Below are positions 13,201-23,196 of a stretch of 24,748 bases of DNA, piece by piece; within the stretch, counting starts at the first letter, position 1, and every line of letters starts with the position of its first letter. Source of the stretch: Treponema sp. (GTDB taxonomy: Bacteria; Spirochaetota; Spirochaetia; Treponematales; Breznakiellaceae); contig JAITBO010000155.1 of assembly GCA_031283505.1 (NCBI GenBank), positions 1 through 24,748 on the forward strand. Direction: 5' to 3'. Below the pieces are notes generated by a model. That model was not told where the DNA came from. It made no database searches and saw nothing but the letters and a program-made list of their open reading frames with translations. The position numbers and the translations under genes were made by a program.

Positions 13201-13361
13201 AAATAAAAATAAAGAAGAATTTAACCACAAATTATACGAATAGACACAAACAAAAGAATATCACCACAAAAAATCCGTTGAGTATCATGGGGTATGGCAG
13301 CAATTTAACAGTTACCGGCTTATCCGTGGGGAAAAATCTTCCGCGCAAGGGATAGGAGCGG

Positions 13362-13426
13362 TATCCTTTTTTGCCGCAGGCAAAAAAGATACAAGCGGAT
13401 AGCCCGGTCAATCCCGAAGGGATTGA
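13362..13426. repeat. Two adjacent short hairpins, candidate dispersed motif
   Basis: TATCCTTTTTTGCC (13362-13375) pairs, with one mismatch or slip, with GGCAAAAAAGATA (13379-13391). TCAATCCC (13408-13415) pairs perfectly with GGGATTGA (13419-13426) over a GAA loop. The intervening AGCGGATAGCCCGG is the sort of constant block seen in intergenic repeats of many bacteria, which I recall only in general terms. It lies about 140 bases upstream of the flavoprotein promoter. Confidence 0.45.
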
Positions 13427-19183: not shown

Positions 19184-19903
19184 TTAGAGTTCAATCCCCC
19201 GTTTGCCCGATTCCCTGGCCTTTCGGGCCAGAACGGCGGCCTCCTGCGGCCCCGGCGCGTCCAGGCTGTTCCAGTCCGGGTCCAGACAGTTTCCGGGCCT
19301 GAAAGCCCTGAAATACCAGGGCGCACCGTCAACCAGGGCCGCCATGGCCGGAATTTCACCGGGAGCAAGATAACGATTGGGCAAGGCGAGGCTGCGGAAT
19401 TCGTGGTCTATGCCGGAAGCCCGGATCAGATCGGCGCTCCTTTTCAGAGCGCCGCCGGCTTCCCCCGGCGCACCCGCGTTCCCCGGTGCAAGTTCCCCGT
19501 ACCGTTCAGGGGGGAGCTTCAGATCCAGGGCGACGTAATCGGGCCGGGTTTCTTCCCGGGAAAAAAGGTTTTCCAGAACGCCGGGATGCATTCCGTTGGT
19601 GTCCAGTTTCACCGGAAGCCCCAGGGCCTTGACCCGCATGAGGATTTCCCCCAGGCCGCCTGAAGCTGTGGGCTCCCCGCCGCTCAGGACCACCCCGCCC
19701 AAAACGGAACGGCGTTTCAGCAGATGCCCCGCCGCCTCGTCAACGGTAAGGAGGTCCACCCTCCCGGTCAGAAGACCGGGCAGGACAAGCTCCCGGTTCT
19801 GGCACCAGGGGCACCGGAGGCTGCACCCCGGAAAGAACAGCGCCGCCGCCACCTTCCCCGGATAATCCACCAGGCTGGTCTTGCGCAGGAGTATCCGGTC
19901 CAC
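19184..19903 (-). CDS. nrdG: Anaerobic ribonucleotide reductase activating enzyme (radical SAM)
   Basis: This enzyme uses S-adenosylmethionine and a [4Fe-4S] cluster to make the glycyl radical of class III ribonucleotide reductase. The cluster motif CSLRCPWC gives C27, C31 and C34. GGVVLSGGEPTASG (70-83) is the SAM-binding GGE motif, and KLDTNGMHP and DYVALDLKLP are further barrel strands. At 239 residues it is of the longer NrdG2 type (anaerobic NTP reductase activator as in TIGR02495) rather than the ~155-residue E. coli type. The start is GTG (19901-19903), 23 bases after the upstream gene. Its expected target glycine is not in NrdD here but in the adjacent small protein. Confidence 0.92.
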   Translation of the reverse strand: MDRILLRKTSLVDYPGKVAAALFFPGCSLRCPWCQNRELVLPGLLTGRVDLLTVDEAAGHLLKRRSVLGGVVLSGGEPTASGGLGEILMRVKALGLPVKLDTNGMHPGVLENLFSREETRPDYVALDLKLPPERYGELAPGNAGAPGEAGGALKRSADLIRASGIDHEFRSLALPNRYLAPGEIPAMAALVDGAPWYFRAFRPGNCLDPDWNSLDAPGPQEAAVLARKARESGKRGIEL

Positions 19904-19926: not shown

Positions 19927-20442
19927 CTACACCGCCGCCAGAGCGTTTATGCTCCCCGCGTCAAGGGCACGGCCCACTTCCTGACCGTCTCCGGCAAGGA
20001 GTATCGCTGTGGGGGTGGAAAAGACCCGCCGCCGCGCCGCTTCCGCCATACCGGCTTCCGTATCGGCGTTTACCAGGTCAACGGGAATACCCAGACGGCT
20101 TGCCGCAGCCTTTGCTCCGGGACAGGCCGGACAAGCGGGGCGCACAAACAGAAGGAGCCGCCCTTCGCCGCCCTGAAAAACGTCCGCCGCCGGCGTTGAA
20201 GGGTAAGATGGAATTTCCCGTCCGGCGGCCTCTCCTGCCCCCTGTCGCGCCGGGTTCTCTCCCGCAGACAAGCGGAAGGTTTTCCGCTCCCCGTATTCTT
20301 CCCGTTTTCCCCTGTTCCAGTTCCGCACGGACCGGTAGTAACCGACAATACGGCTGTAAACTTCCGCCCGGGTCCCTTCCGCATGGGAAAGAGCCTCCCG
20401 GGCCGCCGCCAAATCTTTTTCGATTTCCTCAAGGTTTCTCAT
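19927..20442 (-). CDS. Detached NrdD glycyl-radical segment fused to a thioredoxin-like domain
   Basis: The 171 residues have three parts. Residues 3-22 form a heptad-patterned helix (L4, I7, L11, A14, L18, A21). Residues 27-56 (EVYSRIVGYYR, then NWNRGKREEYGERKTF) match the extreme C-terminus of class III ribonucleotide reductases, where R-x-x-G-Y holds the radical glycine; this would be G34. After a linker (57-93) comes a thioredoxin/glutaredoxin fold: LLLFVRPACPACPG with redox pair C104/C107 and cis-proline STPT at 142-145. AAGGAG 5 bases before the ATG fixes the start. NrdD, the previous gene, lacks this segment. So I read it as the radical-bearing, self-reducing subunit of a split reductase, activated by the NrdG encoded next. 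Function is inferred from motif and position. Confidence 0.85.
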   Translation of the reverse strand: MRNLEEIEKDLAAAREALSHAEGTRAEVYSRIVGYYRSVRNWNRGKREEYGERKTFRLSAGENPARQGAGEAAGREIPSYPSTPAADVFQGGEGRLLLFVRPACPACPGAKAAASRLGIPVDLVNADTEAGMAEAARRRVFSTPTAILLAGDGQEVGRALDAGSINALAAV

Positions 20443-20674
20443 ATTTTCTCCTTAATTCATCTTAAATGAATATGTTGATAATCCAATGTCAACAAGTTAC
20501 AGGGGGAGCGTGTTGGCTTCTGAAAGCTAAGGGCATGACGCTCCTCTGCGGCCGTTTTTGACGCTGCTCCCCCTCGCTCCAGCCTTGCTCCACCTGATCG
20601 TGGAATTTTACCGGCGGCCCGGAACAAGTGGAGCAAGTCTTCCGCTGCCCCCACTCGTTTCCTGTTGACAGTAT
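20443..20674 (-). other. Hairpin-rich 232-base spacer between NrdD and the glycyl-radical protein
   Basis: No gene fits here. Stems seen: GGAGCGT/ACGCTCC (20505-20511, 20538-20544) enclosing TTGGCTT/AAGCTAA; a perfect 10-bp CTTGCTCCAC/GTGGAGCAAG (20584-20593, 20628-20637) around a GC-rich loop; and a small ATTCAT/ATGAAT near the ribosome site (20455-20471). A TTGACA occurs on the minus strand (20487-20492), but no good -10 stands 16-18 bases after it. It could control the ratio of the two subunits, or be the scar of an inserted element. Confidence 0.55.
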
Positions 20675-22738
20675 TTATACCCCGGTCAAAACCGCTTTAC
20701 GCTCCTGTTCCAGTTCCGCTATCTTCTGTTTCAGTTTTTCTTCCGTCTCATCTTTGCACCGGGGACAGTTGAAGTGTTCCCCCCTAAGGTAGCCGTGAAC
20801 CGGACACACGGAAAATGTGGGGGAAATCGTGAAGTAGGGGATGCGGTAGGTATGGGCTATGGCCTTAACCAGGTCCCGGCAGGCCCGCCAATCTTCGATA
20901 GCTTCCCCCAGGAAAACATGGAACACCGTACCGCCGGTGTAGGCCGCCTGAAGTTCTTCCTGAAGGTCCAGGGCATCGAAAATATCCTCTGTTTCCATAA
21001 CCGGCAGTTGGGTAGAATTGGTGTAGTAGGGCTCCCCGCCGTTTCCCCCCGCAGTAATGATGCGGGGATAACGCTTCTTGTCATGTTTCGCCAGCCGGTA
21101 GGAGGTTGACTCCGCGGGAGTGGCCTCCAGGTTGAAAAGCTCCCCGGTCTCCTCCTGGAAATCCGCAAGTTTGTCCCGCATAAAGCGTAGCGTCGAAAGC
21201 GCGAAAGCCCGTCCCCGTTCCGTGGCTATCGTCGCGTCTTCCCCAAGGAAGTTGAGGAGGCACTCGTTCATCCCCACAAGACCGATGGTGTTGAAATGGT
21301 TGTCGAGGCCCGAAAGGTAGCGCCGGGTGTAGGGGAAAAGGCCCGCTTCCAGAAGCCGGTTCACCGCCTTCCGCTTGATGACAAGGCTTTCTTTTGCCAG
21401 GTTCATGAGCCGGATGAGGCGGGCAAAAAAATCCTCCTCGTCTTTGGCGAGATAGCCGATGCGGGGCAGGTTGATGGTCACCACTCCTATAGAGCCGGTA
21501 AGCTCGTCGGACCCAAAGAGGCCGCCTCCCCGCTTGCGGAGTTCCCGCTTGTCCAACTGAAGACGGCAGCACATGGACCGGACATCCGCCGGGTTAAGAT
21601 CGGAGTTGACGAAATTCTGAAAATAGGGCGTACCGTACCGGGAGGTCATCTCGAAGAGGAGCCGGGCATTTTCGCTTTCCCAGTCGAAATCGGGTGTGAT
21701 GTTGTAGGTCGGGATGGGATACTGAAAGCCCCGGCCTTCGGCATCCCCTTCCAGCATGAGTTCGATGAAGGCGCGGTTCACCCGGTCTATTTCTTCCTTG
21801 CAGTCCCCATAGGTAAAATCCGTTTCTTTTCCCCCTACCACCGCCTTCTTGTCCCGAAGGTCCGCCGGAACCGTCCAGTCCAGGGTGATGTTGGTGAAAG
21901 GCGCCTGACTGCCCCAGCGGCTCGGGGTGTTCACCCCGAAGACAAAGCTCTGAAGGCACTGTTTGAGTTCCCGGTCCGGAAGCCCGTCGGCCTTTACAAA
22001 GGGGGCGATGTAGGTATCGAAGGAACTGAATGCCTGGGCGCCGGCCCATTCGTTCTGGAGGCAACCCAGGAAATTCACTGCCTGCTGCATCAGGGTGGAA
22101 AGGTGTTTGGCGGGTTTGCTGGTGATCTTGTCCGGCACCCCGCCCAGGCCCTCGGCGATAAGCTGCCTGAGGGACCAGCCCGCGCAGTACCCGGAGAACA
22201 TGGACAGATCGTGGATGTGGAAGTCCGCGTTCCGGTGGGCTTCAGCGATTTCCGGGGGGTAGATGTTTTTCAGCCAGTAATGGGCGGTAATGCTCCCGGA
22301 ATTGTGGAGGATGAGCCCCCCAAGGGAATAATTGACGTTGGCGTTTTCGTTTACCCGCCAGTCGGACTGTCTGAGATACCCATCCATGGTGGAATCTATG
22401 TCCAGCATGAGCTTTTTCGCGTCCCGCATGGCCTCATGCCTGGCCCGGTAGAGGATGTAGGCCTTGGCGACCGCAGTCTCCCTGGCCTCGACGAGGGATG
22501 TTTCCACCAGATCCTGAATTTCCTCTATGGCCGGGATTGAGTTGGGATGCCTTCCCGCCATGAGTTCTTCGATTTTTTCCTCGGTCAAACGAGTTACGCC
22601 TTCCGCTTTCCGGGGGAAGCTTTTTTCGTCATCCCCCGCGCTCCCTGCGGCTTTAAAAGCCTTGAGTACCGCGTTGTAGATCTTGGAGCGATCATAGGGA
22701 GCCACATCCCCGGATCGTTTGACCGCCTGCCGAATCAT
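20675..22738 (-). CDS. nrdD: Class III anaerobic ribonucleotide reductase, catalytic part without glycyl-radical tail
   Basis: It reduces ribonucleoside triphosphates to dNTPs without oxygen. Of 687 residues, about 3-100 are an ATP-cone (RQAVKRSGDVAPYDRSKI) for allosteric control. The ten-stranded barrel holds FSGYCAGW (C185) and SMCCRLQLD (C390/C391), the cysteines expected for the thiyl radical and its partner; GMNECLLNF (488-496) and TITAGG-type strands follow. The zinc site is CPVHGY...CPRC (C645, H648, C658, C661). The usual R-x-x-G-Y radical segment should come within 10-15 residues, but the protein ends at 687 with a helical KLKQKIAELEQERKAVL. The missing segment is in the next gene. 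Start ATG at 22738 overlaps the nrdR stop (TGATG), with GGGAGG upstream. Confidence 0.94.
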   Translation of the reverse strand: MIRQAVKRSGDVAPYDRSKIYNAVLKAFKAAGSAGDDEKSFPRKAEGVTRLTEEKIEELMAGRHPNSIPAIEEIQDLVETSLVEARETAVAKAYILYRARHEAMRDAKKLMLDIDSTMDGYLRQSDWRVNENANVNYSLGGLILHNSGSITAHYWLKNIYPPEIAEAHRNADFHIHDLSMFSGYCAGWSLRQLIAEGLGGVPDKITSKPAKHLSTLMQQAVNFLGCLQNEWAGAQAFSSFDTYIAPFVKADGLPDRELKQCLQSFVFGVNTPSRWGSQAPFTNITLDWTVPADLRDKKAVVGGKETDFTYGDCKEEIDRVNRAFIELMLEGDAEGRGFQYPIPTYNITPDFDWESENARLLFEMTSRYGTPYFQNFVNSDLNPADVRSMCCRLQLDKRELRKRGGGLFGSDELTGSIGVVTINLPRIGYLAKDEEDFFARLIRLMNLAKESLVIKRKAVNRLLEAGLFPYTRRYLSGLDNHFNTIGLVGMNECLLNFLGEDATIATERGRAFALSTLRFMRDKLADFQEETGELFNLEATPAESTSYRLAKHDKKRYPRIITAGGNGGEPYYTNSTQLPVMETEDIFDALDLQEELQAAYTGGTVFHVFLGEAIEDWRACRDLVKAIAHTYRIPYFTISPTFSVCPVHGYLRGEHFNCPRCKDETEEKLKQKIAELEQERKAVLTGV

Positions 22739-23196
22739 CAATTGTTCCCTCCCATTTTCCGTATTTCTCCTATGAATTCATCCATGTTTTCAAAATGACG
22801 GTACACCGAAGCGAACCGTATATAGGCCACCTTGTCCAGGGTCTTCAATTTTTCCAAAACAAGATCCCCTATGGCCGTTGCGGCTATCTCGTGGTTGTTC
22901 CCCTGCATGGCGGCGGCGTCTTCTATCTCGTTCACCAGGCTTTCTATGTTCATCTGGGACACCGGACGTTTCTCCAGGGCCCGCTGCACGCCCCGTTCAA
23001 TCTTGGTCCGGTCAAAAGGCTCCCGGCGGCCGTTCTTTTTGATCACCATGAACTGCTTGTCCTCGATCCGTTCATAACTGGTGAACCGGAACCCGCAGGC
23101 ATTGCACTCCCGCCGTCTGCGTATGGCTTCCCCGTTGGCCAAAGTCCGGGATTCAATCACTTTATCGTCAAAGTTACCGCAATGAGGGCAGCGCAT
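22738..23196 (-). CDS. nrdR: Transcriptional repressor of ribonucleotide reductase genes
   Basis: NrdR senses dATP/ATP through an ATP-cone and represses nrd operons. The 152 residues have the zinc ribbon with C3, C6, C31 and C34 (MRCPHCG, CNACGFRFTSYE), and the ATP-cone from about 49 to 139 (VIKKNGRREPFDRTKIERGVQRALEKRPV). It is first in the operon, with nrdD overlapping its stop, and two NrdR boxes lie in its own promoter region, so autorepression is expected. AAGGA just before the ATG serves as ribosome site. Confidence 0.97.
   Translation of the reverse strand: MRCPHCGNFDDKVIESRTLANGEAIRRRRECNACGFRFTSYERIEDKQFMVIKKNGRREPFDRTKIERGVQRALEKRPVSQMNIESLVNEIEDAAAMQGNNHEIAATAIGDLVLEKLKTLDKVAYIRFASVYRHFENMDEFIGEIRKMGGNN

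What the first reader, a model, noticed from the sequence alone, without database searches (positions are those of the whole stretch)
19927..22738. Split class III ribonucleotide reductase: radical glycine on a separate polypeptide
NrdD keeps its ATP-cone, C185, C390/C391 and zinc ligands, but ends 26 residues after the last zinc cysteine with no R-x-x-G-Y segment. In class III enzymes that segment sits right after the zinc site and bears the essential glycyl radical. The next gene encodes exactly this segment (EVYSRIVGYYR followed by NWNRGK). The nearest parallel known to me is GrcA (YfiD), a free glycyl-radical unit that repairs pyruvate formate-lyase; here the split would be the normal state, in one operon with nrdG. 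I do not recall a description of this for ribonucleotide reductase, but cannot search.
Basis: partly seen in the sequence, partly recalled or inferred. Interest (0 to 1): 0.93.

Follow-up and report, generated by a model that had tools for sequence, protein, structure and literature searches.

The report
Two-piece anaerobic ribonucleotide reductase
A spirochaete encodes its oxygen-free enzyme for making DNA building blocks as two separate proteins, with the essential radical-bearing glycine segment missing from the large one and present on a small one that is predicted to plug into it; because no other enzyme of this kind was found in some relatives with nearly complete genomes, the two-piece version likely does the job on its own.

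Summary
Window NrdD (20675-22738, minus) matches Pfam NRDD positions 1-531 of 562 and has no R-x-x-G-Y. The next gene (19927-20442) matches positions 533-562 and ends in a glutaredoxin-like domain. It is no frameshift: the arrangement is conserved across Spirochaetota, with gene gaps in all three frames. In nine single-contig genomes, and a tenth on one large contig, the halves lie at least 95 kb apart. Of 167 genomes whose NrdD lacks the radical segment, 165 carry it on a separate ORF; of 65 with only intact NrdD, 2 have an extra hit. In G362, G338 and G240, each one contig or nearly so, no other ribonucleotide reductase was found. One-piece NrdD-glutaredoxin fusions in other spirochaetes are the likely ancestor. 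A model of one relative's joined pair puts the small protein's glycine where T4 NrdD and pyruvate formate-lyase have theirs. A mini form (about 40-85 aa, no glutaredoxin) occurs in other phyla and in phages. Catalysis is untested. The papers searched gave no description; one calls class II NrdJab the only split reductase of a non-viral organism.

The parts
22738..23196 (-). nrdR-like regulator gene, overlapping the start of nrdD
   Evidence: ORF; a homologue lies upstream of nrdD in 56 of 58 related loci with room. The name nrdR is recalled; no family search was made.
20675..22738 (-). nrdD: class III RNR catalytic subunit without the glycyl-radical segment
   Evidence: PF13597 1-531/562, ATP-cone PF03477; NF006126 1071 bits; no R..GY
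22433..22723 (-). ATP-cone of NrdD
   Evidence: residues 7-103
22184..22186 (-). codon of C185, first-strand active-site cysteine
   Evidence: role from family knowledge
21566..21571 (-). codons of C390 and C391 in the MCCR finger-loop motif
   Evidence: motif classes in PMC9669993 section 9
20756..20806 (-). zinc-type site CPVHGY...CPRC
   Evidence: by motif only
20678..20755 (-). added 26-residue tail of NrdD, absent from the one-piece NrdDs seen; predicted helix
   Evidence: in the relative's model helix 670-700, pLDDT 96-97 for 671-690 and 79 for 691-700
20443..20674 (-). 232-nt gap between the two genes; folds more stably than shuffles (z -3.7)
   Evidence: gap length varies from -14 to 384 nt in relatives
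20448..20453 (-). Shine-Dalgarno-like AAGGAG of the small gene
   Evidence: sequence; a 5-mer core at 91 of 117 small genes
19927..20442 (-). small gene: glycyl-radical segment plus glutaredoxin-like domain, 171 aa
   Evidence: PF13597 533-562/562 and PF00462; 1131 homologues
20383..20442 (-). added N-terminal amphipathic stretch of the small protein; predicted helix
   Evidence: helical moment over 1 sd above shuffles in 89 of 90 relatives; helix 725-740 in the model
20338..20352 (-). R31-I-V-G34-Y35: radical-glycine motif
19945..20160 (-). glutaredoxin-like domain, CPAC at residues 104-107 (edges approximate)
   Evidence: PF00462 at 97-140; folded at pLDDT 84-94 in the relative's model
19184..19903 (-). 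NrdG2-like radical SAM activase gene
   Evidence: TIGR02495 126.7 bits against cut-off 131.15; a homologue downstream in 27 of 58 loci

Best explanation
In this spirochaete the class III ribonucleotide reductase is encoded as two separate proteins, NrdD without a radical-glycine segment and a small protein that has that segment joined to a glutaredoxin-like domain, and the two are predicted to assemble into one working enzyme. Shown: the split, its wide conservation, its co-occurrence pattern, and that in some genomes no other ribonucleotide reductase was found. Predicted: a helix added at the NrdD C-terminus and one at the small protein's N-terminus hold the pieces together, and the R-x-x-G-Y loop enters the NrdD barrel at the usual place. 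Inferred: NrdG puts the radical on G34 of the small protein, probably when it is bound to NrdD; the radical passes to a finger-loop cysteine of NrdD and reduction proceeds as in other class III enzymes; the attached glutaredoxin likely re-reduces the active-site cysteines. Inferred history: a one-piece NrdD-glutaredoxin fusion was cut between zinc site and glycine loop. A likely advantage is that oxygen, which cleaves glycyl radical enzymes at the glycine, would destroy only the cheap small subunit.
For: Complementary Pfam coverage 1-531 and 533-562. 322 relatives of the small protein in the genome collection, 80 kept; among 82 rows (those 80, viral locus L001 and the window) a script found both halves in 71, never in one ORF. 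Halves 95 kb or more apart on one contig in ten genomes (contig lengths). Free segment in 165 of 167 genomes with segment-less NrdD against 2 of 65 with intact NrdD only; 9 of 241 fragmentary genomes left out. No other RNR found in G362, G338, G240. Six intact NrdD-Grx fusions and one further intact NrdD are sister to 75 rows, 73 of them split; one origin of these is not rejected (p-AU 0.52). AF2 of a relative's read-through pair: pLDDT 83.7, blocks around the glycine 93, 82, 88; added helices 79-97; superposition 2.6 A over 552 residues with P. copri NrdD; counting back from the end of the aligned ranges, its glycine 755 falls on PFL 734 and T4 NrdD 580. The MCCR motif is compatible with formate or thioredoxin-type reductants (PMC9669993 section 9); a Grx fused to another RNR subunit is an efficient reductant (PMC6187632, title and passages).
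Against: No biochemistry. The window's genome is not held. 24 of 167 split-bearing genomes also have an intact NrdD. Two draft genomes (G269, G331) have segment-less NrdD without a partner found. G214 is counted as split but its NrdD hit scores like the other, MGCR, type and its break may be something else; without it the count is 164 of 166. The model is of a joined proxy and AF2 knows many such enzymes; the finger loop (404-423) is under pLDDT 50 and no coordinates were available, so no Gly-Cys distance can be given. Small proteins of G173 and G346 lack the glutaredoxin part, so it is not essential to the split. NrdG is adjacent in only 27 of 58 loci. The NrdD tail's amphipathic score is like shuffles.
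Confidence: 0.86

Rival explanations
1. The small protein is a GrcA/YfiD-like spare part that repairs an oxygen-cut full-length NrdD, and the short NrdD is a by-product.
For: Free glycyl modules that rescue cut pyruvate formate-lyase are known, and others were speculated (PMC8683613 passages). Free mini copies lie in phages and in prophage-like regions. 24 of 167 split-bearing genomes also have an intact NrdD.
Against: 143 of 167 split-bearing genomes show no full-length NrdD to repair, and intact-only genomes almost never have the free part (2 of 65). Intact NrdDs that coexist with a split one were of another type (MGCR) in 8 of 8 looked at, out of 24. The NrdD gene itself ends before the segment.
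Confidence: 0.07
2. The two genes are joined in expression by frameshifting, bypassing or stop-codon read-through into one NrdD-glycyl-glutaredoxin chain.
For: A few loci are in frame with a single stop between (L005, L006, L007, L013), and the window gap is strongly structured.
Against: Gaps run from -14 to 384 nt in all frames (20/32/19); a Shine-Dalgarno core stands before a candidate ATG in 91 of 117 small genes against 80 of 1884 internal ATGs (any candidate against single ATGs, so the contrast is somewhat inflated); the genes lie far apart in ten genomes.
Confidence: 0.02
3. The split NrdD is dead or makes no radical, and the small protein is just a glutaredoxin that kept a remnant.
For: No activity data; 24 genomes have another NrdD.
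Against: Glycine motif (21 aligned small proteins) and catalytic cysteines (37 rows) are invariant in close relatives, co-occurrence is near perfect, and in some genomes nothing else was found.
Confidence: 0.03

Closest known systems
One-piece class III RNR, NrdD (T. maritima 4u3e, T4 1h7b, P. copri 8p23)
   Same: Barrel, active-site cysteines, zinc-type site, glycine motif and predicted placement of it; ATP-cone as in P. copri
   Different: There the glycine loop is in the same chain, about four residues after the zinc site in the intact sequences seen here; here it is on another protein with an added stretch on each side
GrcA/YfiD and phage T4 Y06I
   Same: A small stand-alone protein that bears the glycyl-radical segment of a larger enzyme
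   Different: These replace the lost end of damaged pyruvate formate-lyase (PMC8683613 passages); here the partner is an RNR whose gene lacks the segment from the start
Split class II RNR NrdJa/NrdJb of Pseudomonas aeruginosa
   Same: An RNR divided over two genes, the small one tied to re-reduction (PMC4520616 passages)
   Different: Class II, B12 radical; catalytic machinery is confined to NrdJa
Grx-NrdB fusion of Facklamia ignava
   Same: A glutaredoxin domain built into an RNR component
   Different: Class I radical subunit, N-terminal Grx; the passages seen of that survey name one NrdD fusion, in a Lachnospiraceae genome (its Table S1 not seen)
Split phage nrdD genes (introns, homing endonucleases, unexplained breaks)
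   Same: nrdD in more than one ORF (PMC3653736 passages)
   Different: Not described in those passages as a free radical subunit

Membership tests
Class III RNR (NrdD) | NRDD barrel and ATP-cone | tested here: met
   structure of a relative
Class III RNR (NrdD) | Active-site cysteines and finger-loop cysteine motif | tested here: met
   C185, MCCR, by motif and alignment
Class III RNR (NrdD) | Glycyl-radical R-x-x-G-Y in the same polypeptide | tested here: not met
   absent from NrdD; present on the small protein
Class III RNR (NrdD) | Activation by NrdG | tested here: inconclusive
   adjacent NrdG2-like gene just under cut-off; activity not testable
GrcA/YfiD spare-part proteins | Free-standing glycyl-radical segment | tested here: met
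GrcA/YfiD spare-part proteins | Matches the C-terminus of a full-length enzyme in the same genome | tested here: not met
   in relatives only: 143 of 167 split-bearing genomes show no intact NrdD; the window genome is not held
GrcA/YfiD spare-part proteins | Restores an oxygen-cleaved enzyme | not testable with these tools
   needs experiment
Glutaredoxin/NrdH-type redoxins | Glutaredoxin model match and CxxC | tested here: met
   PF00462 above cut-off, CPAC; weak hits to NrdH and glutaredoxin chains
Split class II RNR NrdJab | B12-dependent class II barrel | tested here: not met
   barrel families matched are class III; class I/II models match only the ATP-cone part

The most novel reading that the evidence does not exclude
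Class III ribonucleotide reductase exists in nature as a true two-subunit radical enzyme: a catalytic NrdD and a detachable radical-glycine subunit that can be encoded anywhere in the genome, was split off at least twice, is as small as about 40-60 residues, and is carried by phages as a mobile plug-in part for the host's NrdD.
Probability: 0.6. Interest if true: 0.94.

Novelty: new variant of a known kind. Interest (0 to 1): 0.87.

Why it matters
Glycyl radical enzymes are thought of as carrying their radical on the same chain as the active site; here an essential DNA-precursor enzyme would carry it on another protein, in normal operation and not as a repair. It makes testable whether the radical part is exchangeable, whether oxygen damage is confined to it, and how activase, radical carrier and reductant are handed over. 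In logic it resembles the radical subunit of class I enzymes. It would also correct annotation: segment-less NrdDs look defective and free parts are called whole reductases. An archaeal virus, ANMV-1, was said to encode an oxygen-sensitive reductase (PMC4372165 passages), yet the only NRDD match in its 38,465-base record is a free glycyl-radical domain of 144 aa.

Tried and rejected
Frameshift or read-through: rejected as above. Rfam: no family at gathering threshold in the gap. A first alignment with the small proteins as separate rows was misaligned by MAFFT (A2) and not used. The first structure job (A3, 37 close rows) gave pLDDT 65.4; its aligned ranges agree but I rely on the second. Amphipathicity of the NrdD tail did not differ from shuffles. 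A single origin of the long-type split is neither shown nor rejected: two compact intact NrdDs (L092, L100) sit inside the split group with support 80, but the tree with all split rows held together is no worse. In that tree I set by hand the labels of rows whose partner the script had not seen: eight as long-type split (L030, L040, L116, L117, L119, L141, L170, L181) and the unlinked ones. Papers: searches listed no description of a class III RNR with its glycine on another protein; the library holds open-licence PMC papers only.
Full report
WHAT IS THERE. On the minus strand the window reads an nrdR-like gene (23196-22738), nrdD (22738-20675), a 232-nt gap, a 171-codon gene (20442-19927) and an NrdG2-like activase gene (19903-19184). 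NrdD matches the NRDD model over positions 1-531 of 562 plus an ATP-cone; the small protein matches positions 533-562 in residues 26-56 and a glutaredoxin model in residues 97-140. NrdD ends 26 residues after its last zinc-type cysteine and holds no R..GY. The small protein has R31-I-V-G34-Y35, then NWNRGK. The nearest NrdD in the tree, from a Treponema sp. metagenome assembly (L002), is 95% identical over 585 columns, so the source is a spirochaete.

NOT AN ARTEFACT. A protein search found 1131 relatives of the small protein, 120 listed; those listed with an organism are all Treponema or other Spirochaetes, including Breznakiella homolactica and Leadbettera azotonutricia. A scan of genome contigs gave 322 relatives, 80 kept. 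Among 82 rows (those 80, viral locus L001 and the window) a script found both halves in 71; none was one ORF. The gap between genes ranged from -14 to 384 nt, median 67, with 20, 32 and 19 cases in the three frames. A Shine-Dalgarno core precedes a candidate ATG of the small gene in 91 of 117 cases; 80 of 1884 internal ATGs of nrdD have one (the first count allows any candidate start, so it is generous). In ten genomes the halves lie on one contig but far apart (places, distances recomputed): G039 95 kb, G375 131, G134 133, G346 290, G284 308, G181 360, G173 515, G027 527, G360 826, and G296 2235 kb, or 471 if the contig is a circle. Nine of these contigs have about the whole genome's size; G360's has 2.35 of 2.7 Mb. 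G173's contig length is the one I recall for Treponema denticola ATCC 35405; no call names it. In G173 and G346 the small protein lacks the glutaredoxin part. These facts exclude a frameshift, and read-through as a general explanation.

WHO HAS IT. Of 392 sampled Spirochaetota genomes 241 have an NRDD match. I sorted these by hand, and checked the lists. 167 have an NrdD hit that stops before the glycine segment; 165 of them have that segment as a separate hit (misses: drafts G269, G331). G214 among them is doubtful, see evidence against. 65 have only intact NrdD; 2 of these have an extra segment hit (G103, and G022 with five stops). 9 are fragments or otherwise unclear and left out (G059, G132, G158, G162, G167, G191, G200, G233, G325). 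Fisher's test gives 9e-52, but the genomes are related and partly drafts, so the number is only a guide. 24 of the 167 also have an intact NrdD; 8 of these 24 were looked at and all 8 are of the MGCR type. 90 of the 241 have no PF02867 match, that is, no class I or II enzyme found. Of the 45 of these with exactly two NRDD matches, 44 have only a split pair, and PF00317 was found in one of them (G170), leaving 43 with a split NrdD and no other RNR found. Among these, G362 and G338 are single contigs of 2.63 and 2.66 Mb, about the genome size, and G240 has 3.43 of 3.5 Mb in one contig. So the split enzyme must be the working one there unless a gene was missed or an unknown kind of RNR is present.

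ORIGIN. Other spirochaetes have one-piece NrdDs that continue through zinc site, EVYSRITGYYRP or EVWSRITGYYRP, NWN.GK and a linker into a glutaredoxin-like domain. In a tree of 93 NrdD barrels (zinc site and beyond left out, drawn with a midpoint root) six of these and one further intact NrdD are sister to 75 rows, 73 of them split, with support 80 for the 75. The small protein is therefore most simply the cut-off end of such a fusion. The alignment with intact phage NrdDs shows the cut: intact chains have about four residues between CPxC and the E-V-Y-S-R segment, while split ones have a tail on NrdD (21-49 residues after the last zinc ligand, median 27, 86 rows) and an added stretch at the start of the small protein. 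A second group of split NrdDs, with free parts of 54-66 residues without glutaredoxin (L112, L120, L125, L127, L142, L147, L159, L161), branches with other intact NrdDs (L082, L085, L086), so at least two separations are likely.

MECHANISM. Shown: two genes, complementary parts, invariance of the motifs in close relatives, co-occurrence, no other RNR found in some genomes. Predicted: assembly and loop insertion. Inferred: activation of G34 by NrdG, radical transfer to a finger-loop cysteine, reduction with help of the attached glutaredoxin. Most MCCR enzymes appear to contain the parts for formate or thioredoxin as reductant (PMC9669993, section 9), so formate remains possible. YfiD is activated well only with the damaged enzyme present (PMC8683613 passages); by analogy the small protein may be activated on NrdD. 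Oxygen cleaves class III enzymes at the glycyl radical (PMC3019208 passage), so a replaceable subunit could pay off.

WIDER FAMILY. A profile of mini parts found 7982 small proteins among the 7991 scored (a capped set), 120 listed; organisms named there are Spirochaetes or 'bacterium'. A phage-type query found 740, with names from Victivallaceae, Victivallales, Lentisphaerae, Thermoguttaceae and Desulfobacteraceae. 239 of the 240 listed in both have R-[IVT]-x-G-[YF] (chosen by similarity). In IMG/VR 157 loci matched, 80 kept; in 61 the motif was in an ORF under 140 aa, and 2 of these had an NrdD barrel in the locus (the rest of the contigs was not searched, except L001, with no other match, and L226, with a full split pair). 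Copies in G072, G191 and G097 lie beside phage genes; one in G100 (L279) showed none. Whether hosts of these phages have segment-less NrdDs was not tested.

KNOWN OR NEW. [quoted passage not shown] PMC8683613 that only PFL spare parts were validated. PMC9531940, PMC9669993 (plus section 9), PMC11226230, PMC3653736, PMC12288474, PMC3019208, PMC4372165 and PMC6187632 were read in passages only. I file it as a new variant of class III RNR: it meets the barrel features, fails the same-chain glycine, and works like GrcA without being a repair part.

Noticed in passing
IMG/VR loci L197-L276, e.g. L212 4018-4155, L001 5001-5132: Phage contigs carry free glycyl-radical mini proteins of about 45-60 aa, mostly with no NrdD in view; possibly plug-in or spare parts for the host enzyme.
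   Followed up: partly
L298/L226 (same contig), L312, L318, L326, L330: Phage-encoded NrdDs that end without the glycine segment; on the L226 contig a free 59-aa part lies about 1.4 kb downstream (a whole split pair), L312 has a tail like the spirochaete ones.
   Followed up: partly
L277 3680-4114 (KP703175.1, ANMV-1 virus): A 144-aa CDS named anaerobic ribonucleoside triphosphate reductase is a free glycyl-radical domain with CxxC pairs, and the only NRDD match in the record; the paper speaks of an oxygen-sensitive reductase.
   Followed up: yes
G100, G203, G097, G072 and G191 (L279-L283): Genomes with one NrdD (segment-less in the first four, fragmentary in G191) and three or four free mini parts at different places; copies in G072, G191 and G097 sit beside phage genes (baseplate, integrase, ParB-like, RecE).
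   Followed up: partly
L244 7809-8111, L247, L274, L275: Phage ORFs of about 75-100 aa with CxxC pairs before the glycine motif: apparently a whole free glycyl-radical domain including its zinc ribbon.
   Followed up: no
L089, L093, L094, L098, L101, L102, L107: One-piece NrdD with a C-terminal glutaredoxin domain in unnamed spirochaetes, a fusion not named for them in the passages read of the RNR-Grx survey.
   Followed up: yes
window 20443-20674: The intergenic gap folds unusually stably (z -3.7) with a 19-nt inverted repeat; maybe an inserted element.
   Followed up: no
window 13340-13413 +: Rfam Flavo-1 RNA match, 44.4 bits against a gathering score of 42.
   Followed up: no
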